DNA of 64,000 nucleotides, taken from the NCBI GenBank assembly GCA_017399175.1, contig JAFQEE010000023.1, positions 25,107-89,106 of the forward strand, read 5' to 3'. Below, piece after piece: positions 50,195 to 61,567 of this stretch (position 1 is its first letter; the number at the start of each line of letters is the position of its first letter). The notes beneath the pieces were generated by a model, which did no database searches, had not been told where the DNA came from, and was given only the letters and a program-made list of their open reading frames with translations. The position numbers were made by a program, and so were the translations under genes. Origin of the DNA: Clostridia bacterium. Its GTDB lineage: Bacteria; Bacillota; Clostridia; Oscillospirales; Acutalibacteraceae.

Positions 50195-50243
50195 CCTCCC
50201 TCTGACGAGGGAGGTGGCAACGCATTAGCGTTGACGGAGGGAG
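50195..50243 (+). repeat. Short family C repeat supplying the ribosome binding site of the next gene
   Basis: CCTCCCTC (50195-50202) pairs with GAGGGAGG (50207-50214); CAACGC/GCGTTG (50218-50233) forms a second hairpin. GGAGGGAG (50236-50243) serves as the ribosome binding site of the deaminase gene. CTCCCTC of the first arm can pair alternatively with GAGGGAG of this site, so the element can fold in two ways. Confidence 0.65.
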
Positions 50244-50254
50244 AGATAAACAAA

Positions 50255-51547
50255 ATGTTATTTAAAAACATCTCAATAATCAACGAAAACCTTGAAATCG
50301 AAAACAATATGTATGTTGGTGTCAAGGCTGATAAAATCGACTATATCGGAGCAATAAAACCACAGGAAAACTATGGTGAAGAATACGACGGAAAGGGAAA
50401 AGTCCTGTCATCAGGCTTTGTAAATCTTCATACTCATTCACCTATGACACTTCTTCGTGGCTATGCTGAAAATCTTCCTTTGGACCGTTGGCTCAATGAA
50501 AAGGTTTTTCCTTTTGAGGACAGACTTAATTGTGACCGTGCATATTATGGTACTATGCTTTCAATAGCAGAAATGCTCAGTAGCGGTACAACATCATTTA
50601 CCGATATGTATTTCTTCGGTGATGGTGTTATGAAGGCTGTAATCGACAGTAAGGCAAAAACTAATTTTGGCCGTTCAATCGTGTCATTCGTTGATGAAGA
50701 TATCGAGAAAAATGACCGTTTTCAAGAGGGTATTTATCTTGCTGAAAAGTATCACAATACACAGAACGGTAAAATCAAGATTGATATGAGCCTTCACGCA
50801 GAATATACAAACCGACTTTCAATTATCGAGCAGTTTGGTGAGTTCACAAACGGGAAGGACTATATAAATCACATTCATTTGTCAGAAACAAAGGCTGAAC
50901 ACGAAAATTGCAAGGCAAAATACGGAAAAACTCCTGCTCGTCTTTTCTATGATGCAAAGGTGTTCAACAGCCCTACAATTCTCGCTCATTGTGTGTGGGT
51001 AGAAGATGATGATATGGACATATTCAAGGAAATGGGTGTAACGGTTGCTCATTGTCCTGCAAGTAATATGAAACTTGGAAGCGGTTTCTGTGACACATAT
51101 AAGTTGTTACAGAAAGGCGTAAATATCGGTATCGGTACTGATTCAGCTGCAAGTAATAACGGACTTGACATTATGCGTGAAATGTATCTTGCAGCACTTT
51201 TACCAAAGGGTGTGAAAAACAAAGCCGATATCGTAACTCCACAGGATATTTATAAGATGGCTACTGTCAACGGATATAAAGCACAGGGCAGAAACGATTG
51301 CGGTGTAATTAAAGTTGGTAACAAAGCCGATTTAATCGTGCTTGATATGTCAACACCTAATATGTATCCTGATTTTGATATTCTAAATAATCTCGTTTAT
51401 TCAGCAAATAAGAGTAATGTAGTACTTACAATGGTTGACGGTGAAATTCTCTACAAAAATGGCGAATTTACAACTATTGATGTTGAAAAAATGGGATATG
51501 AGGTCAGCCGTCTTGTACGCGAAGTAGTAAACGAGGTAAATGGGTAA
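50255..51547 (+). CDS. 5-methylthioadenosine/S-adenosylhomocysteine deaminase-type amidohydrolase
   Basis: 430 residues from the ATG at 50255; the upstream TTG at 50231 lies in the repeat. It belongs to the ATZ/TRZ amidohydrolases. The zinc ligands HTH of FVNLHTHSPMTLLRGY, the later His in HAEYTNRL and HIHLSETKAEH, and the Asp of IGTDSAASNN are present. It should deaminate methylthioadenosine or S-adenosylhomocysteine to the inosine analogue. Its stop overlaps the start of a purine nucleoside phosphorylase gene, and mtnA follows, so the operon handles methylthioadenosine. Confidence 0.88.
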   Translation: MLFKNISIINENLEIENNMYVGVKADKIDYIGAIKPQENYGEEYDGKGKVLSSGFVNLHTHSPMTLLRGYAENLPLDRWLNEKVFPFEDRLNCDRAYYGTMLSIAEMLSSGTTSFTDMYFFGDGVMKAVIDSKAKTNFGRSIVSFVDEDIEKNDRFQEGIYLAEKYHNTQNGKIKIDMSLHAEYTNRLSIIEQFGEFTNGKDYINHIHLSETKAEHENCKAKYGKTPARLFYDAKVFNSPTILAHCVWVEDDDMDIFKEMGVTVAHCPASNMKLGSGFCDTYKLLQKGVNIGIGTDSAASNNGLDIMREMYLAALLPKGVKNKADIVTPQDIYKMATVNGYKAQGRNDCGVIKVGNKADLIVLDMSTPNMYPDFDILNNLVYSANKSNVVLTMVDGEILYKNGEFTTIDVEKMGYEVSRLVREVVNEVNG

Positions 51548-52350
51548 TGATTACAAAAGCAGTTGAATATATAAAATCAAAAATTACAGATACTTATGAA
51601 ATCGGTATTATTTTAGGCAGTGGACTCGGCACTCTCGGTGAAAAGATTGAAAATCCACAGTTTGTGGATTATGCGGATATTCCTGATTTTCCTGTTTCAA
51701 CAGCACCGGGTCATGTTGGACGATTTGTTTTCGGTACACTTAACGGCAAAAAGGTTATGTGTATGCAGGGTAGAATCCACCTGTACGAGGGCTATGAAGT
51801 GCAGAATGTCGTAATGCCAATCCGCGTTTTGAAAATGATGGGTGTTAAAAAACTTATAGTAACAAATGCAGCAGGCGGCATCAATGAAAACTTTAATGTT
51901 GGCGATATTATGGTGATTACAGACCACATTAATTTTACAGGTAAAAATTGTCTTATTGGCAAAAATGATGATAATTTTGGATGCCGTTTCCCTGATATGA
52001 GTTTTGCTTATGCACCCGAACTTCGTGAAATTGCATTTGATTGTGCTGAAAAGTTAGGAATGAAACTCCGTGAAGGCGTATATATTGGTTGTACAGGACC
52101 TTCATATGAAACACCTGCCGAAATCCGTGCATTTCGTGTGCTTGGTGCTGATACAGTTGGTATGTCAACTGTTCAGGAAGTCATCGCAGCAAACCATTGT
52201 GGTATTGATGTTCTCGGTTTTTCACTTGTTTCTAATAAAGCAGCAGGACTTTTAGGGGAAAGACTTACTGAAGAAGAAGTTCTTACAATCGGCAGGCAAA
52301 AAAGCGAAGAAATGCAGTCACTAATTACCGAAATCGTAGGTGAATTTTAA
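51547..52350 (+). CDS. Purine-nucleoside phosphorylase, probably acting on methylthioinosine
   Basis: 267 residues, trimeric PNP/MTAP fold. GIILGSGLGTLGE (phosphate loop), GRIHLYEGY, TNAAGGIN and GCTGPSYETPAEIRAF are typical. It splits a purine nucleoside with phosphate, giving hypoxanthine and the ribose-1-phosphate. In this operon, following a methylthioadenosine deaminase and preceding mtnA, methylthioinosine is a plausible substrate, but inosine or guanosine cannot be excluded from sequence. Its start overlaps the upstream stop, and its stop overlaps the mtnA start. Confidence 0.9.
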   Translation: MITKAVEYIKSKITDTYEIGIILGSGLGTLGEKIENPQFVDYADIPDFPVSTAPGHVGRFVFGTLNGKKVMCMQGRIHLYEGYEVQNVVMPIRVLKMMGVKKLIVTNAAGGINENFNVGDIMVITDHINFTGKNCLIGKNDDNFGCRFPDMSFAYAPELREIAFDCAEKLGMKLREGVYIGCTGPSYETPAEIRAFRVLGADTVGMSTVQEVIAANHCGIDVLGFSLVSNKAAGLLGERLTEEEVLTIGRQKSEEMQSLITEIVGEF

Positions 52351-53381
52351 TGTTTTTGAATGATGCAGCAGTGGGCTTTGATACTGTAAATAACAAGGCA
52401 GTTTTCATTGACCAGACACTTTTGCCAAATGAATATAAAGAGGTTTGCACCGACGATTATAACGAGATTTTTGATGCAATAAAACTCCTTAAAGTTCGTG
52501 GTGCACCTGCAATAGGTGTGTTCACAGCAATCTCGTTGGCTGTGCTTATGAACAAGAGTAAAGCCTTGACATACGAAACTCTTTTCAAGGAATTGAAAAA
52601 GTATTGTGATGACCTTATTCTGTGCAGACCGACCGCAATAAACCTTAAATGGGCAACCGGTGAGATGCTCAGAATTGCAGAAGAAAGCACCACGGAAAAC
52701 TTTAGACTGAATCTTACAAATCAAGCATTAAAAATGATTGATGATGATATTGCAATCTGCAGAAAAATTGGTGAATACGGTGCACAATTACTTAAAAACT
52801 GCAATTCAATTCTCACTCATTGTAATGCAGGTCGTCTTGCAACCGTGAAATACGGAACAGCACTTTCACCCGTATATATTGCAAAGGAAAACGGACATAA
52901 TATCAAGGTTTTTGCTGATGAAACACGACCACTTTTACAAGGGGCGCGAATTACTGCATCCGAACTTTGTGAATCGGGAATTGATACAACTGTTATTTGC
53001 GACAATATGGCATCATATGTTATGAAAAACGGACTTGTTGATGCAGTTCTTGTTGGTTGTGACCGAGTAGCATTAAACGGTGATACTGCAAACAAAATTG
53101 GTACAAGCGGTATTGCAATTCTTGCAAAATACTATAATGTTCCGTTTTATGTGTGTATGCCTTTTTCATCATTTGACAAGAGTATTAAAACAGGTGACGA
53201 TATTGTAATCGAAATGCGAAATGGTGACGAAATAGGGGATATGTGGTATGAAAATAGTATGATTCCACAAAATGCAAAAACACTTAATCCTGCATTTGAT
53301 GTTACCGACCACTCACTTATAACTGCATTCATTACAGAAAAAGGTGTATTTACACCAAACCAAATAAAAAATTACATATAA
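52350..53381 (+). CDS. mtnA: S-methyl-5-thioribose-1-phosphate isomerase
   Basis: 343 residues. It converts methylthioribose-1-phosphate to methylthioribulose-1-phosphate. The family blocks are RGAPAIGVF, THCNAGRLATVKYGTALSP, DETRPLLQGARITASEL and VGCDRVALNGDTANKIGT, including the catalytic Cys and Asp. The start codon overlaps the phosphorylase stop by one base. The later steps of the classical methionine salvage route (mtnB, C, D, E) are not in this window. Confidence 0.93.
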   Translation: MFLNDAAVGFDTVNNKAVFIDQTLLPNEYKEVCTDDYNEIFDAIKLLKVRGAPAIGVFTAISLAVLMNKSKALTYETLFKELKKYCDDLILCRPTAINLKWATGEMLRIAEESTTENFRLNLTNQALKMIDDDIAICRKIGEYGAQLLKNCNSILTHCNAGRLATVKYGTALSPVYIAKENGHNIKVFADETRPLLQGARITASELCESGIDTTVICDNMASYVMKNGLVDAVLVGCDRVALNGDTANKIGTSGIAILAKYYNVPFYVCMPFSSFDKSIKTGDDIVIEMRNGDEIGDMWYENSMIPQNAKTLNPAFDVTDHSLITAFITEKGVFTPNQIKNYI

Positions 53382-53422: not shown

Positions 53423-53648
53423 AAATCATAATTTGTATGGGAGAATATGAAATTAAAATAGGAATGAAAACCTTGTAGGGTCGGGTCTCCGTGCCCGACC
53501 GCGGATTTATCGGTTGACTACGGGCAGGCACTGAGACCTGCCCCTACAACCAATCCCATTGGCTAATATTTATAATTGTGTCGCAGACCCTTCATTTTGC
53601 ACTTTGCACTTTGCATTTTACACTTACCCCAATAACCTCAAATTTATT
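53423..53648. repeat. Family A modular intergenic repeat (copy 5)
   Basis: The left end AAATCATAATTTGTATGG (53423-53440) and the right end CCCCAATAACCTCAAATTTA (53627-53646) bound GTAGGGTCGGG, a GGTCTCCGTGCCCGACC palindrome, GCAGGCACTGAGACCTGCC, ATTGGCTAATATTTATAATTG, GTGTCGCAGACCC and a TTTGCAC tandem tract (about 53594-53625). This is the most complete plus-orientation copy. Confidence 0.8.
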
Positions 53649-53693: not shown

Positions 53694-53722
53694 TTGACAA
53701 ATCAACAAAAAAGAGGTAGAAT
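53694..53722 (+). promoter_or_regulatory. Promoter of the GH3 operon
   Basis: TTGACA (53694-53699) and TAGAAT (53717-53722) with a 17-base spacer, about 38 bases before the GTG start. No operator is obvious. Confidence 0.8.
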
Positions 53723-53759: not shown

Positions 53760-55976
53760 GTGGCAAAAACAAAGACACCTTTAACTGTGGAACAAACAGA
53801 AATCAATAAAATGAAGAAAAAGGAAACACTTATTCAGTTTTTTAAGAATTTCTTTATGGGATTTGTTGTGACAATTTTTGAAAGTCTTTCTTTAAATCCT
53901 TTGTACAAACTGTTTGACGGAACATGGTTCGCAGAAAAATTCGGTCTGCTTTTAGTTGCCAATTCCGTAAGTATCATAATATTTTTCTTTGTAAGATTTT
54001 TTGTAAATTACTTCTGGGTTTTCCATAGCAAGAAAAACATTCTCAAAATTCTGCCTTTATTTGCTGTATTGATTGTTGTTTTCTCTTGGTCAACAACAGA
54101 ACTTATTGATTTGATGATTAGACTTTTCAATATGTCAGCAGAAGCAGTGGACCTTTTAGGTGACGATACAATAAGACTTATTTCAAAGCTTACGGTTACA
54201 TTTGTAATGGGAATTGTAAACTTCGCAATTTGCAAATTATTTATATTTAACGATAAAAAAAGAAGAAAGCAAGGAGGAAAAAGAATGAATCCTTTAAGCT
54301 ATGTATTCAGTGCATATGGTCGTATGGTTGGTCGTATGGAACTTGTAAAATTGGGATTTTACTCTCATCATGCCGTATGGCAACAGGAGAGAAATCTCAA
54401 AAAACTTATGAAAAAGAATAAAAATACCGTTTACGGTAAAAAGAATAATTTCAAGGATGTAAAATCTGTTGAGGATTATCAGCGCCTTGTTCCTCTTTCA
54501 AATTATTCCGATTACGCTGAATATATTGACCGTATGGCAAATAAAGGCGAGAAAAACCTTATTACTGCAAAGCATATCAGCAGATATAATCAGTCATCAG
54601 GCAGCACAGGTAATTCAAAACTTATACCAATGGGAAGATGGGCAACATGGGTTGTAATGTGCTATAATTTCAGCGCTCCTGTGGGTTGTACTGATAAGTG
54701 GTATAAAAGTCAGGGCAAGAAAATGCCACCACAGAGAGGTCTTCTTACAATCGAGGTTCTTTATCACAGAACTCCAAGCAAGCAGATTGCAGCGGGACTT
54801 GCGGCTCATCCTATTCTTTTTGTTAAACCAATTCATAAATTTATCACAACATCTCCAACGGAGATTATGTTCCCTGAAACAAGAGAACCGATGGATATGC
54901 ACTATATGAAACTTCGTTATGCACTTATGCGTGATGATGTAAGCTATCTTGGTACAGTATTCATCACAATGCTTGAAGCAATGTTTTTCTATCTTGAAAA
55001 CAACTGGGAAATGATTTGTGATGACATTGAAAAGGGTACAATCAATGAAAGTGTTGTTTGTCCGCCTGAAGTCCGTGCAAAGCTTCTTAAAAAATTAAAG
55101 CCGATGCCTGAGCGTGCTGAACAACTCCGCAAGGAATTCAGAAAAGGCTTTGATGATGAAGCTATTGTTCCTCGTATCTGGCCAAAGGTTGGTTGGCTTT
55201 ACGGTATGGGTACAGGCAGTCTTTCTTTCTATGCGAAAAAACTTCGTCGATACATAGGTCCTGATATTCCTATTCACTATCTTGGCTATGCTTCATCAGA
55301 AGGACTTATGGCTGTTCCTATGGAACTTAATTCTTATGAATATGTAATGCTCCCACATAACGGATTTTATGAATTTTTACCTCTTGATGCTCCAGAGGGT
55401 ACAAAGCCTCTTACAATTTCACAGCTTGAGCCGGGTAAGGATTATGAAATTATCGTTACAAATATGAGCGGTCTTTACAGATACAGAATCGAAGATGTTG
55501 TCCGTTGCACAGGATATTACAAGCAGTCACCAAAGATTACTTTCCTTTACAGAAAAAATCAGATTGCAAATATCAGCGGTGAAAAGATTAACCAGACAGC
55601 ATTTGACCTTCTTGTAAATGACCTTTCAGAAGAAGTTGGCGAAGAATTTGTAGGTTACAGCATTTATCCTGACCGTACAACTTCACCGGGACATTACTGC
55701 GTTCTCATTGAACCTGTGAATGATATTCCTGACAGCGAAGCAGAAAGATACGCAGAGATTTTTGAAAAAAGACTTTGCGAAACCAATGTTCTTGTACCAC
55801 CACTTCTTCGTAATGGTGCACTCGGTCATTGTGAGGTTAAATTCCTCAAAAAAGGCACTTATGAAGATTACCGTGAGGTACTTAAGAATCGTGGTGCAAA
55901 CCTTAATCAGGTAAAACCAATTAAAGTTATTGATAATGATGACAGACGAGATTTCTTCTTGTCACATGTTCGTTAA
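53760..55976 (+). CDS. Membrane-domain/GH3 acyl-adenylating enzyme fusion
   Basis: 738 residues from a GTG at 53760 behind AAGGAGG. The first ~170 residues hold about four membrane helices (33-50, 62-82, 95-115, 146-166; GtrA-like in layout). They are joined to a full GH3-type domain with SSGSTGNSKLIPMG (ATP-binding loop), a YGMGTGS and YASSEG region, and GLYRYRIEDVVRCTGYY. GH3 enzymes adenylate a carboxylic acid and pass it to an amine or amino acid. An internal GGAGG and ATG at 54285 (M176), exactly at the domain junction, could yield the soluble enzyme alone. The next gene is a close paralogue. Confidence 0.87.
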   Translation: MAKTKTPLTVEQTEINKMKKKETLIQFFKNFFMGFVVTIFESLSLNPLYKLFDGTWFAEKFGLLLVANSVSIIIFFFVRFFVNYFWVFHSKKNILKILPLFAVLIVVFSWSTTELIDLMIRLFNMSAEAVDLLGDDTIRLISKLTVTFVMGIVNFAICKLFIFNDKKRRKQGGKRMNPLSYVFSAYGRMVGRMELVKLGFYSHHAVWQQERNLKKLMKKNKNTVYGKKNNFKDVKSVEDYQRLVPLSNYSDYAEYIDRMANKGEKNLITAKHISRYNQSSGSTGNSKLIPMGRWATWVVMCYNFSAPVGCTDKWYKSQGKKMPPQRGLLTIEVLYHRTPSKQIAAGLAAHPILFVKPIHKFITTSPTEIMFPETREPMDMHYMKLRYALMRDDVSYLGTVFITMLEAMFFYLENNWEMICDDIEKGTINESVVCPPEVRAKLLKKLKPMPERAEQLRKEFRKGFDDEAIVPRIWPKVGWLYGMGTGSLSFYAKKLRRYIGPDIPIHYLGYASSEGLMAVPMELNSYEYVMLPHNGFYEFLPLDAPEGTKPLTISQLEPGKDYEIIVTNMSGLYRYRIEDVVRCTGYYKQSPKITFLYRKNQIANISGEKINQTAFDLLVNDLSEEVGEEFVGYSIYPDRTTSPGHYCVLIEPVNDIPDSEAERYAEIFEKRLCETNVLVPPLLRNGALGHCEVKFLKKGTYEDYREVLKNRGANLNQVKPIKVIDNDDRRDFFLSHVR
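54272..54287 (+). promoter_or_regulatory. Internal ribosome binding site and start codon at the GH3 domain junction
   Basis: AAGGAGG (from 54271) precedes ATG 54285, in frame, at the point where the membrane part ends (KKRRKQGGKR) and the GH3 part begins (MNPLSYVFS). The second GH3 gene begins at the equivalent point. It may produce a separate soluble protein. Confidence 0.6.
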
Positions 55977-56000
55977 ATATAGTTTGGAGGATGAAACATT

Positions 56001-57704
56001 ATGAAAATTATGAAACGAATGATGGTTAACTTCGGCGTAATGCTCGGCCGTTCGGAACTTGCAAAATTAGCATTCTATTCTCACCACGCTGTATGGCAGC
56101 AGGAGAGAAACCTTAAAAAACTTATGAGAGCAAATAAAAATACAGAATATGGTAAACTCCATAACTTCAAGGATGTAAAATCTGTTGAAGATTATCAGAG
56201 AATCGTACCTTATTCTTGGTATCCTGACTATGCACCATACATTGAGCGTATGGCTGAAAAAGGTGAAAAGAACCTTATTACTGCAAAATATATTCCTAAA
56301 TACAACGAGTCATCAGGTAGTACAGGTAAGTCAAAGCTTGTTCCTATGGGACTTTGGGGTACTTGGGTTTGTCAGTGCTTCAGTTTCAGTGCTCCTGTTG
56401 GATGTGCTCACAAATGGTTCAGAAGTCACGGACAGAAAATGCCGCTTCAGAAAGGTCTTTTGACAGTTGAGGTTCTTCATCATAAGACTCCAAGCGGACA
56501 GACAGCAGCAGGTCTTGCTGCTCATCCAATGCTTTTCTTAAAGCCTATTACTCGTTTCTTCGCAACATCTCCAAAGGAAGTTATGTTCCCTGAAACAAGA
56601 GAGCCAATGGATATGCACTATATGAAACTGCGTCACGCTCTTATCCACGACGATGTTACATATCTTGGAACAGTTTTCATCACAATGCTTGAAGCAATGT
56701 TCTTTTATCTTGAAAACAACTGGGAAATGATTTGTGATGATATCGAAAAGGGGACAATTAACGAAAGTATCGTTTGTCCTCCTGATGTTCGCAAAAAACT
56801 TCTCAAGAAATTAAAGCCAATGCCTGAACGTGCAGAACAACTCCGTAAGGAATTCCGCAAGGGCTTTGACGATGAACCAATCGTTCCTCGTATCTGGCCA
56901 CAGATTGCTTGGCTTTACGGTATGGGTACAGGTAGCCTTTCACTTTACGAAAAGAAACTTCGTAGATATATGGGACCTGATGTTCCTTTCCACTATCTTG
57001 GTTATGCTGCATCAGAAGGTCTTATGGCTGTTCCGATTGAACTTAATTCATTTGAATATGTAATGCTTCCACAGAATGGTTTCTATGAATTCCTTCCAAT
57101 TGATGCTCCTGAAGACACTAAACCACTTACAATTTCACAGCTTGAAGTTGGTAAGGATTACGAAATCATCGTTACAAATATGAGCGGTCTTTACAGATAC
57201 AGAATTGAAGACGTTGTTCGTTGTACAGGTTACTATAAGCAGTCACCAAAGGTTACATTCCTTTACAGACGAAATCAGATTGCTAATATCAGCGGTGAAA
57301 AGATTAACCAGACAGCATTTGACCTTCTTGTAAACGACCTTTCAGAAGAAGTAGGCGAAGAATTTGTAGGATACAGCATTTATCCTGACCGTACAACTTC
57401 ACCGGGACATTACTGCGTTCTTATTGAGCCTGTGAATGATATTCCTGACAGCGAATGTGCTAGATATGCAGAAATTTTTGAAAAGAATCTCTGTGAAACT
57501 AATGTTCTTGTACCACCACTTCTTCGTAACGGTGCTCTCGGCCATTGTGAAGTTAAGTTCCTTAGAAAAGGCACTTACGAAGATTACCGTGAGGTTCTCA
57601 AAAGTCGTGGTGCAAACCTCAATCAGGTTAAGCCTATCAAGGTTATTGATAACGATGACAGAAGAGATTTTTTCCTCTCTCACGTTCGTAATACACTCAA
57701 ATAA
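56001..57704 (+). CDS. GH3-type acyl-adenylating enzyme (second paralogue)
   Basis: 567 residues; the ATG follows TTGGAGG. It is a close copy of the GH3 part of the gene upstream (whole stretches such as FYSHHAVWQQERNLKKLM, MLEAMFFYLENNWEMICDD and YRIEDVVRCTGYYKQSP are identical), without the membrane domain. Differences cluster in short stretches, for example SWYPDYAPYIERMAEKG against SNYSDYAEYIDRMANKG. Such tandem duplication suggests two substrates or a heteromer. The reaction is likely amide (or thioester) formation from an acid via acyl-AMP; the substrates are unknown. Confidence 0.9.
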   Translation: MKIMKRMMVNFGVMLGRSELAKLAFYSHHAVWQQERNLKKLMRANKNTEYGKLHNFKDVKSVEDYQRIVPYSWYPDYAPYIERMAEKGEKNLITAKYIPKYNESSGSTGKSKLVPMGLWGTWVCQCFSFSAPVGCAHKWFRSHGQKMPLQKGLLTVEVLHHKTPSGQTAAGLAAHPMLFLKPITRFFATSPKEVMFPETREPMDMHYMKLRHALIHDDVTYLGTVFITMLEAMFFYLENNWEMICDDIEKGTINESIVCPPDVRKKLLKKLKPMPERAEQLRKEFRKGFDDEPIVPRIWPQIAWLYGMGTGSLSLYEKKLRRYMGPDVPFHYLGYAASEGLMAVPIELNSFEYVMLPQNGFYEFLPIDAPEDTKPLTISQLEVGKDYEIIVTNMSGLYRYRIEDVVRCTGYYKQSPKVTFLYRRNQIANISGEKINQTAFDLLVNDLSEEVGEEFVGYSIYPDRTTSPGHYCVLIEPVNDIPDSECARYAEIFEKNLCETNVLVPPLLRNGALGHCEVKFLRKGTYEDYREVLKSRGANLNQVKPIKVIDNDDRRDFFLSHVRNTLK

Positions 57705-57728
57705 TTAAAAGACAGGAGGCACGGAAAA

Positions 57729-58877
57729 GTGAATATTTTACTTGCAATATTGTTCATTTTAGTTCCTGCACCTATTATATGGCTTAATAACAGAGTTAAA
57801 ATAGTCGAAAAAATCGGTATTGTTATCATCTGTTATGCTCTCGGTATGATTGTGGGTAATATCGGTGTGATTCCTGAAAGTTTTTCGGGAATTCAGACCA
57901 CAATTCAGGATGTGAGCGTGTGCCTTGCATTACCGCTTATTCTCTTTTCAATTGACATAAACAAATGGAAAAAGACTGCTAAAAAAGGTCTTGTGTGTAT
58001 GGGACTTGCAGTTGTTTCAATCGCAACAGTTGTTTTTGTTCTTCATATGATTTTCAGAGAAAACAATCCTAATGTTGCTGACTACGGTGCTTTGGCAATC
58101 GGTGTTTATACAGGCGGTACAGTCAATGTGGCATCAATTGCCGCTGCAAGAAACATTCCTGAAAATTCATATATTATGTTCAATACCGTTGATATGGTTG
58201 TATCTGCATTCTATATGCTTTTCCTTACATCTTTAGGTAGAAAATTTTTCCAGAAAGTATTCCGCCTTCCTGAGTTCCAGGGAAATAAAAATGTAGGAAA
58301 ACTTGAAGAAATTGACAATGACAACAGTTACAAAGGGATGGCAAAACCTGAAATTTTAGGTAAACTTGTTCTTGCATTTCTTCTTTCAGCAGTAATTGTG
58401 GGTATTTCTTATGTGGCAGGTACTTTTGTAAAGGGTTACGAAACAGCTGTTACAATCATTCTTATTACAACAATTTCAATCGCTTGTTCATTTATCAAGC
58501 CTGTGCGTGAAATCAAGAAAACAACATCACTCGGTATGTACATAATTTATATTTTCTGTTTCACGGTTGCAACTATGGCAGATTTCTCTGAAATTGTTCA
58601 TTTCGATTATACAATTATCATTTATGTAACAGTTTCAATTTTCGGCAGTATGCTTTTACATGCTTTACTTTGCAAATTTGCCAAGGTTGACTCTGACACA
58701 ATGATTGTAACATCAGTTTCTGCAATCTGTTCACCGCCATTCGTACCTGTTGCTGCGGCAGCACTCAATAACAACGCTGTGCTCGTATCAGGTCTTACAA
58801 CAGGTATTATCGGTTATGCAGTTGGTAACTATTTAGGTATTTTCATGCATATCATTCTTGAAAATTTACCATTCTAA
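57729..58877 (+). CDS. DUF819-family membrane protein
   Basis: 382 residues from a GTG at 57729 behind AGGAGG. Ten or eleven membrane helices are predicted, in two repeated halves. The signature YTGGTVNVASIAAARNI and DMVVSAFYM match YjcL/DUF819 proteins, which are thought to be transporters. In this operon it may export or import the compound made by the GH3 and PLP enzymes. That assignment is inference. The next gene starts 12 bases downstream. Confidence 0.85.
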   Translation: MNILLAILFILVPAPIIWLNNRVKIVEKIGIVIICYALGMIVGNIGVIPESFSGIQTTIQDVSVCLALPLILFSIDINKWKKTAKKGLVCMGLAVVSIATVVFVLHMIFRENNPNVADYGALAIGVYTGGTVNVASIAAARNIPENSYIMFNTVDMVVSAFYMLFLTSLGRKFFQKVFRLPEFQGNKNVGKLEEIDNDNSYKGMAKPEILGKLVLAFLLSAVIVGISYVAGTFVKGYETAVTIILITTISIACSFIKPVREIKKTTSLGMYIIYIFCFTVATMADFSEIVHFDYTIIIYVTVSIFGSMLLHALLCKFAKVDSDTMIVTSVSAICSPPFVPVAAAALNNNAVLVSGLTTGIIGYAVGNYLGIFMHIILENLPF

Positions 58878-58889
58878 GGAGGTAACATT

Positions 58890-60332
58890 ATGAATAGTAA
58901 TGTACCACAAAAGGGTAGACCTTTTGAAGAAATACTTAAAGAGCTTGACTCTTTCGGCAAGGATGACCCTAAATATAAAGAGGCAAAAACTTGGAGCCTT
59001 GTTTATTATCTCAACGAAGAATATACACAGTTCTTAAACGATGCATATTCAAAATATTTCTCTGCAAACGGACTTAATCCCACTGCTTTCAAGAGCCTTA
59101 AAAGACTTGAAAAGGAAGTTCTCCGTTTTACTGCTGACCTTTTCCATGTGGACTATGAGGCTTGTGGTGTAATGACCTCCTGCGGTACGGAAAGTTGTAT
59201 GCTTGCAGTAAAAACTTATCGTGATTTAGGTCGTTCAAAGGGTATTAAAAAGCCTGAAATGATTATTCCCGAAACTGCTCACGTTGCTTGGGATAAGGGT
59301 GCTGAGTATTTCGGTGTTAAAATCCGCCGTGCTCCTCTTGACGAGAATTGGCAGGTTGATGTTAAGGCAGTAGAAAAAATGATTAACAAAAATACTGTTA
59401 TGATTTTAGGTTCTGCTCCTGAATATCCTCACGGTATTATCGACCCTATTGAAAAACTTGGTAAACTCGCAGTGGCACATAAAGTCCCGCTTCATGTTGA
59501 TAGTTGTGTTGGTGGTTATATCTTACCATTTATGGAAATGGCAGGAATAGATGTTCCTGTATGGGACTTCAGAGTAGATGGCGTTACTTCAATTTCAGCC
59601 GATATTCATAAATACGGTTTTGCTGCAAAGGGTGCATCTTGTATCCTTTATCGTAATATTGACTATTTTAAGCATCAGGTTTTCGCAAATCAGGACTGGC
59701 CGGGCGGAGTTTTCGCTTCTCCTGCATTCCTCGGTACTCGTCCCGGTGGTGCTTATGCCGCTGCTTGGGCTGCAATTCAGGCAAATGGTATTGAAGGCTA
59801 TGTTGCACTTGCAAAGAAAACTATTGAAGTTTCAAATCTCTTAAAAGAAGAAATATGCAAATTAGGTTGCTTTGAAATTATCGGTAAACCAATCGTCAGC
59901 CTTCTTGCATTCCGTTCAACTGACAAGGATGTAAATATCTTTGCTGTTGGTGATGTTATGGAAGAAAAGGGTTGGCATATTGACCGACTTCAGATGCCTG
60001 ACGCACTTCACGCTATGGTTACTGCACCTCACGAAAAGGTAATTGAAGCATTTATTGCTGACCTTAAGGACGCAGTACAGACAGTTCGTGAGCATCCTGA
60101 ACTTGCAGAAGAAGGACAGGCTGCAACTTACGGTATGATTTCTCATATTCCGCTTCGTGGAATGGTAAGAAAACAGGTTATCGATATTTTTGCAAATTCC
60201 TATAAACTCAATGCAACAGAAATTGACTTGTCTGACAGTAGTGCTGTTGCTCCCGGTGGTGGCGAATCCGAGGGCGAAAAGAAGAGCCTTATGGATAAAA
60301 TCATCAACTGGTATGTCAAGAAAAAATCATAA
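58890..60332 (+). CDS. PLP-dependent lyase/decarboxylase, sphingosine-1-phosphate-lyase-like
   Basis: 480 residues, group II decarboxylase fold. The PLP lysine is K241 in ISADIHKYGFAAKG, with the phosphate-binding SCGTES (98-102), the stacking H131 and HVDSCVGG (202-209). The pattern is closer to sphingosine-phosphate lyase than to glutamate or tyrosine decarboxylase. The C-terminus has the extension SLMDKIINWYVKKKS, perhaps a membrane-binding amphipathic helix. It is last in the GH3 operon, behind AAGGAGG. It could cleave a phosphorylated long-chain amine or decarboxylate an amino acid that supplies the GH3 amine; both are untested. Confidence 0.9.
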   Translation: MNSNVPQKGRPFEEILKELDSFGKDDPKYKEAKTWSLVYYLNEEYTQFLNDAYSKYFSANGLNPTAFKSLKRLEKEVLRFTADLFHVDYEACGVMTSCGTESCMLAVKTYRDLGRSKGIKKPEMIIPETAHVAWDKGAEYFGVKIRRAPLDENWQVDVKAVEKMINKNTVMILGSAPEYPHGIIDPIEKLGKLAVAHKVPLHVDSCVGGYILPFMEMAGIDVPVWDFRVDGVTSISADIHKYGFAAKGASCILYRNIDYFKHQVFANQDWPGGVFASPAFLGTRPGGAYAAAWAAIQANGIEGYVALAKKTIEVSNLLKEEICKLGCFEIIGKPIVSLLAFRSTDKDVNIFAVGDVMEEKGWHIDRLQMPDALHAMVTAPHEKVIEAFIADLKDAVQTVREHPELAEEGQAATYGMISHIPLRGMVRKQVIDIFANSYKLNATEIDLSDSSAVAPGGGESEGEKKSLMDKIINWYVKKKS

Positions 60333-60335
60333 ACC

Positions 60336-60362
60336 AAAGCACCCTATATGGGTGCTTTTTTA
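60336..60362 (+). terminator. Terminator of the GH3 operon
   Basis: AAAGCACCC (60336-60344) pairs with GGGTGCTTT (60350-60358) with a 5-base loop, followed by T. Confidence 0.9.
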
Positions 60363-60377
60363 TGTCAAAATCCAAAC

Positions 60378-60573
60378 AAATCATAATTTGTCGGGGTAAC
60401 TAATTTGGTATGTCATTCTGAGCGTAGCGAAGAATCTCTCCAACAGTTAACATATCAACCAACGGAGATTCTTCGTCGTTACGCTCCTCAGAATGACCCA
60501 TCCTTTATAATCGCGTCGCAGACCATTAATTCCGAATTATGCATTACGAATTACCCCGACAAACTCCAATTTA
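60378..60573. repeat. Family A repeat (copy 6) with nested family B repeat
   Basis: The outer ends are AAATCATAATTTGTCGGGG (60378-60396) and CCCCGACAAACTCCAATTTA (60554-60573). Inside is a complete family B repeat (60412-60497) with ends GTCATTCTGAG and CTCAGAATGAC and GAAGAATCTC/GAGATTCTTC. It is followed by TTATAATCGCGTCGCAGACC and AATTCCGAATTATGC. The structure is a B element inside an A element. Confidence 0.8.
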
Positions 60574-60592: not shown

Positions 60593-60649
60593 TTGACAAC
60601 TAAAACATACTATGCTATAATACATTTAACATTTAAGTTAAATGTTAAA
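60593..60649 (+). promoter_or_regulatory. sdpRI promoter and operator
   Basis: TTGACA (60593-60598) and TATAAT (60616-60621) with a 17-base spacer. A perfect 25-bp palindrome (60625-60649; arms TTTAACATTTAA around a central G) lies right behind the -10 box. It is a strong operator candidate for the ArsR-type regulator encoded next. Confidence 0.9.
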
Positions 60650-60660
60650 GGAGGTATTTT

Positions 60661-60936
60661 ATGGGAATACAAAATACATTAAAAGCCCTTTCTGACCCGG
60701 TACGACGCGAAATACTCAATATGCTCAAAAGTGGTCAGATGACAGCAGGGGAAATAACAGATAAATTCGATATAACAGGTGCTGCAATTTCCCGTCATTT
60801 GTCTGTGTTAAAGGAAGCTGACCTTGTCCGTGATAAAAGGGAAGGAAAATTCATAATCTATGAATTGAACGCATCTGTTCTTGAAGAAATTATGCTTTGG
60901 ATAAAAGATTTGAAAGGAGATAACGGTAATGATTAA
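60661..60936 (+). CDS. sdpR: ArsR-family repressor, SdpR-like
   Basis: 91 residues, one winged helix (RREILNMLKSGQMTAGEI, then ITGAAISRHLSVLKEADLV). Its size and pairing with a SdpI-like gene fit SdpR, which represses its operon and is inactivated when SdpI captures it at the membrane. It probably binds the perfect palindrome at 60625-60649. The stop overlaps the start of the downstream gene by eight bases. Confidence 0.9.
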   Translation: MGIQNTLKALSDPVRREILNMLKSGQMTAGEITDKFDITGAAISRHLSVLKEADLVRDKREGKFIIYELNASVLEEIMLWIKDLKGDNGND

Positions 60937-61567
60937 AAAGAATTTACCAAAACTGATAATTACGTCATTAGTAATCCTTATACCAATACTTATTGGTCTT
61001 ATTTTGTGGGATAAGTTGCCTGACCAAGTCCTAATACATTGGAATATAAATGGTGCAGTTGATGATTATGCTACTAAAACACAAGCAGTATTTTTAATGC
61101 CGTTAGTATTACTTGCTTTCCATTGGATTTGTGTTTTAGGAACATCGCTTGACCCTAAAAAGCAGAATATTAGCGATAAAACATTTACTCTTGTTTTGTG
61201 GATTATTCCTGTTATATCTTTGCTTTGCAACTCAATGGTGTATGCAACAGCATTAGGTCATAAGGTCAGCGTTGAAATTATAATGCCACTTTTTATGGGT
61301 GCATTGTTTGTTGTAATCGGCAATTATTTTCCAAAATGCAAACAGAGTTATACAATAGGCATCAAAATTCCTTGGACTCTTAATGACGAAGAAAACTGGA
61401 ATAAAACACACCGTATGGCAGGCTTTCTTTGGGTAATCGGTGGAGTTGTAATAATGGCAACAGCATTTTTAGGTGCATTCTGTCTTTTCTTTGTTGTGCT
61501 TATACCAATGGTTATTATCCCATTCGTATATTCTTATCTTCTTTACAAAAAGAAGAAAACAGAATAA
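60929..61567 (+). CDS. sdpI: SdpI-family membrane immunity/signalling protein
   Basis: 212 residues with six membrane helices (about 9-27, 50-70, 84-104, 112-130, 157-177, 180-203). The N-terminal LPDQVLIHWNINGAVDDYATK is the DUF1648 part and the later region (IGIKIPWTLNDEENWNKTHRMAGFLW) is the SdpI part. In Bacillus SdpI gives immunity to the SdpC toxin and sequesters SdpR. No SdpC-like toxin gene is seen here. Confidence 0.9.
   Translation: MIKKNLPKLIITSLVILIPILIGLILWDKLPDQVLIHWNINGAVDDYATKTQAVFLMPLVLLAFHWICVLGTSLDPKKQNISDKTFTLVLWIIPVISLLCNSMVYATALGHKVSVEIIMPLFMGALFVVIGNYFPKCKQSYTIGIKIPWTLNDEENWNKTHRMAGFLWVIGGVVIMATAFLGAFCLFFVVLIPMVIIPFVYSYLLYKKKKTE

What the first reader, a model, noticed from the sequence alone, without database searches (positions are those of the whole stretch)
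53760..60332. An unusual operon of two GH3 enzymes, a DUF819 transporter and a sphingosine-phosphate-lyase-like enzyme
Four genes share one promoter and terminator with short gaps. GH3 proteins form acyl-adenylates and join acids to amines or amino acids. They are well studied in plants but little in bacteria. A PLP enzyme of lyase or decarboxylase type and a multi-pass membrane protein complete a possible pathway for making (or breaking) an acyl amide, lipoamino acid or long-chain amine. I know of no described system of this composition in gut Clostridia.
Basis: inference. Interest (0 to 1): 0.75.

Follow-up and report, generated by a model that had tools for sequence, protein, structure and literature searches.

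The report
Amide-forming operon with odd sphingoid-type lyase
A gut Clostridia-type operon joins amide-making GH3 enzymes to an old gene pair, a transporter and a relative of sphingosine-phosphate lyase whose altered binding pocket, and kin beside taurine genes, suggest that it releases taurine rather than phosphoethanolamine.

Summary
Window 53760-60332 carries, on one strand with 12-24 nt gaps, two GH3 genes, a DUF819 membrane protein and a sphingosine-1-phosphate-lyase (SPL) homologue. ORF1 also holds a GtrA-like membrane domain; in five relatives this is a separate gene before a single GH3, so the window shows a GH3 duplication and a lost stop. GtrA-GH3-DUF819-SPL recurs in six genomes including the window's.

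The old core is DUF819-SPL: DUF819 lies directly upstream in 43 of 76 SPL loci of a motif-based scan, across several phyla; GH3 is in 4 of 80. The branch is not orthodox SPL: phosphate-pocket residues A103 and H129 are Leu and Asn in 80 of 80 scanned and 13 of 13 family/class loci (at least 3 shared), while catalytic residues and entry Tyr482 stay. In the window's family, six genomes carry a sister form heading an operon with a taurine-type aminotransferase and an isethionate-sulfite-lyase-type enzyme.

Best reading: the PLP enzyme releases taurine from capnine or cysteate, and GH3 makes an N-acyl amide. Substrates are inferred, not shown.

The parts
53694..53722 (+). promoter-like site TTGACA-17-TAGAAT
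   Evidence: such sites are not enriched over shuffles in the region
53760..54284 (+). GtrA-like membrane domain, N-terminal part of ORF1; a separate gene in five relatives
   Evidence: 16.9 bits, below the 26.1 cut-off; separate homologues in L037 and L040 at 19.9 and 22.5 bits, also below
54285..55976 (+). GH3 copy a; internal AGGAGG+ATG, so probably also made as a free protein (inference)
56001..57704 (+). GH3 copy b, nearest to the single GH3 of G010 (96%)
57729..58877 (+). DUF819 transporter-like membrane protein (CPA/AT clan)
   Evidence: 122.4 bits; clan from PMC8396727 passages
58890..60332 (+). PLP enzyme of an S1P-lyase sister branch (L37, N63; K241 binds PLP by homology)
60336..60358 (+). 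intrinsic-terminator-like hairpin

Best explanation
The operon is a GtrA-GH3 pair placed in front of an old DUF819-PLP-enzyme pair. Shown: composition, order, conservation, recognisable catalytic motifs, changed phosphate pocket. Inferred: the PLP enzyme cleaves the bond next to the amine-bearing carbon of a substrate with a short acidic head (-CH2-SO3), releasing taurine. The favoured substrate is capnine, the sulfonate analogue of sphinganine-1-phosphate (recalled chemistry) and backbone of gut sulfonolipids, which would give taurine plus a fatty aldehyde; cysteate decarboxylation is the near rival. DUF819 moves the acidic substrate or the amine product. GH3 adenylates a fatty acid with ATP and joins it to an amine or amino acid (perhaps taurine) to make an N-acyl amide, with the GtrA-like protein as its membrane partner.
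For: Order GtrA-GH3-DUF819-SPL in six genomes with differing flanks. DUF819 directly upstream in 43 of 76 SPL loci. Leu at A103 and Asn at H129 in 80 of 80 scanned and 13 of 13 other loci (at least 3 of the 13 are the same genes as in the 80); K311, K317, N126, H201, C276, D274 and Y482 kept in all, Y105 in 78 of 80 (Phe in 2) and 13 of 13 (residue roles from PMC6148460 Table 3). A Leu there would fit a head shorter than O-phosphate (inference). In six family genomes a sister SPL heads the order SPL-hydrolase-MFS-aminotransferase-GRE, with the activase found in 3 of the 6. L105's aminotransferase has taurine:2-oxoglutarate aminotransferase as best solved relative, 498 against 265 bits for the next; the GREs of L105 and L110, the two tested, are nearest to IslA. 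Seven of 300 family genomes pass the GRE cut-off; six are these, and the seventh lacks SPL, hydrolase, MFS and aminotransferase in the 20 kb around its GRE. The window-type GH3s form a clade (98/95, with one unlinked member) sister to ten GH3s each followed by a protein of one cluster, weakly like a condensation domain in the one member scanned.
Against: I know of no assayed enzyme of this SPL branch. The window genome has no IslA-type GRE match at 1e-100. The taurine-operon SPLs are only 44-49% identical to the window's and form a separate clade, so function may differ. Beside the 80 scanned loci (up to 10 kb each side) no relative of L105's aminotransferase was found at 1e-30 over 60% of its length, and of the GRE and activase only a 28-32% identical pair some 5 kb away on the other strand in L127. 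DUF819, an ABC ATPase and asparaginase neighbours suggest a small soluble substrate, which fits cysteate or aspartate better than a lipid. GH3 is beside only 4 of 80 scanned SPLs, so the two halves may work apart.
Confidence: 0.38

Rival explanations
1. The PLP enzyme is an acidic amino-acid decarboxylase (cysteate, cysteine sulfinate or aspartate to taurine, hypotaurine or beta-alanine) and DUF819 its substrate/product exchanger, like the AspT-aspartate decarboxylase pair (recalled); GH3 then acylates the amine.
For: Cysteate would give taurine too, so the taurine operon fits equally. DUF819 belongs to the clan of glutamate symporters and aspartate:alanine exchangers (PMC8396727 passages). 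Two SPL loci (L143, L165) are followed by asparaginase II. MfnA-type decarboxylases are the next relatives after S1P lyases.
Against: Much closer to S1P lyases (377 bits) than to MfnA (112); under the MfnA equivalog cut-off (257 against 299.4). Tyr482 of the SPL C-terminal extension is kept in every locus examined. The window genome has a PanD match (flagged with one in-frame TAA), so beta-alanine for pantothenate need not come from here.
Confidence: 0.25
2. An ordinary S1P lyase that breaks down host or dietary sphingoid phosphates to phosphoethanolamine and fatty aldehyde, with GH3 using the derived fatty acid.
For: End-to-end alignment with human and Symbiobacterium S1P lyase at about 377 bits; N126, K317 and, but for 2 of 80, Y105 of the phosphate site kept. 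One of the five enzymes in the review's table has Gln at the H129 site, so that site tolerates change.
Against: A103 and H129 are Leu and Asn in every locus examined, where the table's five enzymes have Ala/Thr and His/Gln; the sister form sits with taurine-type, not ethanolamine, genes.
Confidence: 0.2
3. The GH3 part and the DUF819-PLP-enzyme part are unrelated pathways that share a transcript.
For: DUF819-SPL stands without GH3 in most scanned loci; a 76% identical GH3 (L041, G327 contig 9) stands on another contig than that genome's DUF819-SPL (contig 21).
Against: The block is kept in six genomes with different flanks.
Confidence: 0.15

Closest known systems
Sphingosine-1-phosphate lyase (StSPL, human SGPL1, Dpl1p)
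   Same: PLP lysine and PLP-contact residues, Tyr482, end-to-end alignment at about 377 bits
   Different: Two substrate-phosphate residues replaced (A103L, H129N) in all loci examined; often paired with DUF819; a sister form in taurine-type operons
OlsH, GH3-like N-acyl ornithine synthetase of planctomycetes (PMC12493201)
   Same: GH3 family with recognisable ATP motifs; GH3s of the sister clade are followed by a possible acyltransferase, as OlsH shares an operon with the O-acyltransferase OlsI
   Different: 72.8 bits against an equivalog cut-off of 620; partners here are DUF819 and a PLP enzyme
Plant GH3 acyl acid amido synthetases (JAR1)
   Same: 187 bits to JAR1; three nucleotide motifs recognisable
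   Different: Bacterial, duplicated, in an operon with GtrA-like and DUF819 membrane proteins
Taurine-isethionate pathway with IslA/IseG (Bilophila; PMC6453916 passages)
   Same: A sister SPL form heads such an operon in six family genomes
   Different: No IslA-type match in the window genome; published operons, as I recall them, hold no SPL
AspT-aspartate decarboxylase exchanger pair (recalled)
   Same: Two-gene pair of a PLP enzyme and a CPA/AT-clan transporter
   Different: Different transporter family (DUF819) and PLP enzyme of SPL type

Membership tests
S1P lyase | PLP lysine K311 and PLP residues H201, C276, D274 | tested here: met
   80 of 80 scanned and 13 of 13 other loci
S1P lyase | Substrate-phosphate residues A/T103 and H/Q129 | tested here: not met
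   Leu and Asn in 80 of 80 and 13 of 13; roles from PMC6148460 Table 3
S1P lyase | Entry Tyr482 in the C-terminal extension | tested here: met
   80 of 80 and 13 of 13
S1P lyase | Cleavage of S1P | not testable with these tools
   needs an assay
GH3 acyl amido synthetase | GH3 N, M and C domains and three ATP motifs | tested here: met
GH3 acyl amido synthetase | ATP-dependent amide formation | not testable with these tools
   needs an assay
OlsH | NCBIfam equivalog NF052613 over 620 bits | tested here: not met
   72.8 bits for both GH3 ORFs
MfnA tyrosine decarboxylase | TIGR03812 over 299.4 bits | tested here: not met
   257 bits
DUF819 | Pfam PF05684 over 27 bits | tested here: met
   122.4 bits
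GtrA | Pfam PF04138 over 26.1 bits | tested here: not met
   16.9 bits in the window, 19.9 and 22.5 in two relatives
IslA taurine pathway in the window genome | IslA/HpsG-type glycyl radical enzyme | tested here: not met
   no match at 1e-100 in G000

The most novel reading that the evidence does not exclude
A large, unrecognised branch of the S1P-lyase family is capnine (sulfonosphingoid) lyase: it cuts the backbone of bacterial sulfonolipids to taurine and a fatty aldehyde. In the window it feeds a GH3 that makes N-acyl amides such as N-acyl taurines; in six relatives it feeds isethionate desulfonation to sulfite.
Probability: 0.25. Interest if true: 0.85.

Novelty: new variant of a known kind. 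Interest (0 to 1): 0.6.

Why it matters
Gut bacteria make sulfonolipids, and steps of their synthesis are known (PMC11211663 abstract), but my searches listed no enzyme that takes them apart. A lyase giving taurine would link sulfonolipids to gut taurine, sulfite and sulfide. The GH3 operon is also a concrete candidate source of bacterial N-acyl amides. The DUF819-SPL pair gives a handle on DUF819, for which the passages I read name no substrate.

Tried and rejected
Beta-alanine for pantothenate: PanD (PF02261) passes the cut-off in 28 of 300 family genomes; of the 13 SPL-bearing genomes only the window's has a match. With so few PanD genomes overall this says little, except that the window genome has its own match (flagged with one in-frame TAA).

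HpsG (3-sulfopropanediol lyase) instead of IslA for the taurine-operon GRE: the HpsG model NF048011 is the one passed over its cut-off, but the solved IslA enzymes score higher for L105 (1147 and 1102 against 1076 bits), and I192 and F682 of IslA are kept in L105 and L110 where HpsG has Leu and Ile. Likely, not certain.

Recent transfer of the operon between G000 and G010: GH3b and SPL are 96-97% identical, but glnA is 95%, so no excess is seen. DUF819 (84%) and GtrA (52%) differ more, unexplained.

Solved relatives of DUF819: no credible one by sequence (best E 0.25).

One search gave lower residue counts because nine rows held a wrong ORF; one search recounts all 80 from the match coordinates. 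Four of 80 loci had under 1.3 kb upstream and were left out of the DUF819 count; one of these (L150) has a partial DUF819. The SPL tree used 44 of these sequences and two references, L108 left out. Of 52 GH3 stretches fetched, one (L078) gave no GH3 in my ORF caller.

Papers: PMC12493201 outline with abstract, sections 6 and 8, and section 9 part 1 of 2; PMC6148460 section 26 and passages; PMC8396727, PMC12671195, PMC8473560, PMC6453916 passages; PMC11211663 abstract and passages; others search listings only.
Full report
What is there. ORF1 is more than a GH3: its first 175 residues match GtrA weakly (16.9 bits, below cut-off). In frame at 54285 lies an ATG after AGGAGG. In relatives the two parts are separate genes: in L111 the GtrA frame ends at a TAA that abuts the GH3 start. 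The window's fusion is therefore best read as a lost stop, with GH3a probably also started internally (inference). GH3a and GH3b differ by dS 0.89 and dN 0.10, with recognisable ATP motifs in both; the differences are concentrated in the first 200 residues. PMC12493201 section 6 places acyl- and amino-acid-binding residues of GH3 enzymes in the large N-terminal domain. GH3b is nearest to the single GH3 of G010 (96%).

How far the block is conserved. In the genus, 4 of 39 genomes, the window's included, have a GH3 match; in a sample of the family 39 of 300 do. I fetched 52 stretches around GH3 matches. The order GtrA, GH3, DUF819, SPL appears in L037 (G010), L040 (G258) and L042 (G326), and in the named scan in L111, L112, L113 and L114. 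L111 and L114 have the contig lengths of the G010 and G326 records, so I count them as the same. With the window that makes six genomes. The four named ones are Clostridia MAGs from roe deer, sheep, water deer and goat gut. The flanks differ between the window, L111, L040 and the group L112-L114.

The old core. SPL matches occur in 13 of 300 family genomes and 2 of 391 class genomes, the window's counted in both. The named scan kept the best 80 of 581 places, from Bacillota, Pseudomonadota, desulfobacteria, Spirochaetota, Bacteroidota, Myxococcota and others. DUF819 ends less than 400 nt upstream on the same strand in 43 of the 76 loci that hold at least 1.3 kb upstream; GH3 occurs in 4 of 80. 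So DUF819-SPL looks like the ancestral pair, to which GH3 and GtrA were added in gut Clostridia (inference).

The PLP enzyme is not an orthodox S1P lyase. It aligns end to end with human and Symbiobacterium S1P lyase at about 377 bits. The residue roles are those of Table 3 of PMC6148460. The PLP lysine, PLP-contact residues, N126, K317 and Tyr482 are kept in 80 of 80 scanned loci and 13 of 13 others; Y105 in 78 of 80 (Phe in 2) and 13 of 13. But A103 is Leu and H129 is Asn in all of them (at most 90 distinct genes). The 80 were found with motifs of my alignment, one of which covers the Leu; the 13 were not. In a tree of 44 members and two references, the members form one side of a 100/99 branch (the references are long branches). 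Leu in place of Ala or Thr should shorten the pocket for the head group; this is inference, since no structure could be modelled.

The taurine link. Six of the 13 SPL-bearing family genomes carry a sister form, 44-49% identical to the window's. In all six the order is SPL, beta-lactamase-fold hydrolase, MFS transporter, class III aminotransferase, glycyl radical enzyme; an activase was found in L105, L108 and L110 and not in the stretches held of the other three. A sulfite-reductase-like gene lies on the other side in four of the six, with an O-acetylhomoserine sulfhydrylase in three of these; the contigs of L107 and L110 hold little on that side. L105's aminotransferase has taurine:2-oxoglutarate aminotransferase as its best solved relative at 498 bits, the next 265. 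The radical enzymes of L105 and L110 are nearest to isethionate sulfite-lyases, including 5YMR, named IseG in PMC6453916. Of 300 family genomes, 7 pass the model's cut-off: these six and G081. G081 keeps the radical enzyme, activase, sulfhydrylase and sulfite-reductase-like gene but shows no SPL, hydrolase, MFS or aminotransferase match in the 20 kb fetched. The simplest reading is that SPL and aminotransferase form a front end that makes and uses taurine. Two chemistries could give taurine: retro-aldol cleavage of capnine, the sulfonate analogue of sphinganine-1-phosphate, or decarboxylation of cysteate (both recalled). Sulfonolipids of the capnine type are made by gut bacteria (PMC11211663 abstract).

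Other neighbours. Elsewhere the branch stands beside an AbrB-type membrane protein and an M20 peptidase-like protein (L158), asparaginase II (L143, L165), a solute-binding protein and TauE/SafE (L120), or a dipeptide-type ABC ATPase with aldehyde dehydrogenase and an S58 peptidase (L167). These are single or double cases and pull both ways: aldehyde dehydrogenase fits a lyase, asparaginase and ABC uptake fit a small soluble substrate. Beside the 80 loci no relative of L105's aminotransferase was found at 1e-30, and of the radical enzyme only a 28% identical one in L127. This is the main evidence against carrying the taurine reading over to the window.

GH3. The window's GH3s fall in a clade (98/95) with the other operon GH3s and one unlinked member (L041), sister to a clade of ten GH3s. 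Each of the ten is directly followed by a protein of one cluster; the one member scanned has a condensation-domain match below cut-off (20.7 against 30.6 bits). In planctomycetes the GH3-like OlsH makes N-acyl ornithine and OlsI of the same operon adds the second acyl chain (PMC12493201). That paper's authors suggest that other bacterial GH3s may make other N-acyl amino acids. The window proteins are far below the OlsH cut-off, so the amine is open.

What is known. Searches for OlsH, bacterial GH3, DUF819, bacterial S1P lyase, capnine or sulfonolipid breakdown and cysteate decarboxylase listed no paper that by title or abstract treats this operon, the DUF819-SPL pair or a capnine lyase; only open-licence papers are searched, and lists were capped.

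Verdict. A real, conserved operon; a new variant built of known families. The substrate claims are hypotheses with a clear assay. The strongest new fact is the invariant change in the S1P-lyase phosphate pocket across a branch often tied to DUF819, with a sister form in taurine-type operons.

Noticed in passing
L105-L110 (e.g. L105:8354-17779): Six gut-family genomes carry SPL-hydrolase-MFS-taurine-type aminotransferase-IslA-type operons; four have a sulfite-reductase-like gene and three an O-acetylhomoserine sulfhydrylase beside them: a possible sulfur-assimilation route from sulfonates.
   Followed up: partly
L038, L039, L043-L050: Ten of ten GH3s of the sister clade are directly followed by a protein of one cluster (weak condensation-domain match in the one scanned): a candidate aminolipid synthase pair resembling OlsH-OlsI.
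   Followed up: partly
L053, L055, L060, L061, L065, L066, L068, L070, L077, L086: Other GH3s lie within two genes of a protein of another cluster; the one scanned (L053) matches lecithin:cholesterol acyltransferase below cut-off. L075, L076, L077, L079 have a secreted, GDSL-looking protein next to GH3 (by eye).
   Followed up: no
window 53470-53550 and 60405-60500: Palindromic intergenic repeats on both sides of the operon, looking like REP or MITE-type elements (by eye).
   Followed up: no
window 50231-53381: Amidohydrolase, purine nucleoside phosphorylase and IF-2B-family genes in a row, possibly methylthioadenosine salvage; homologues of all three lie upstream of a divergent GH3 in L080.
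   Followed up: no
window 60661-61567: ArsR-type regulator followed by an SdpI/DUF1648 membrane protein, with a 12-of-12 promoter-like site at 60593.
   Followed up: no
L102, L103, L119, L121: DUF819-SPL followed by a 499-residue membrane-like protein (no Pfam match in L102) and preceded by a DUF4838 protein (scanned in L102).
   Followed up: no
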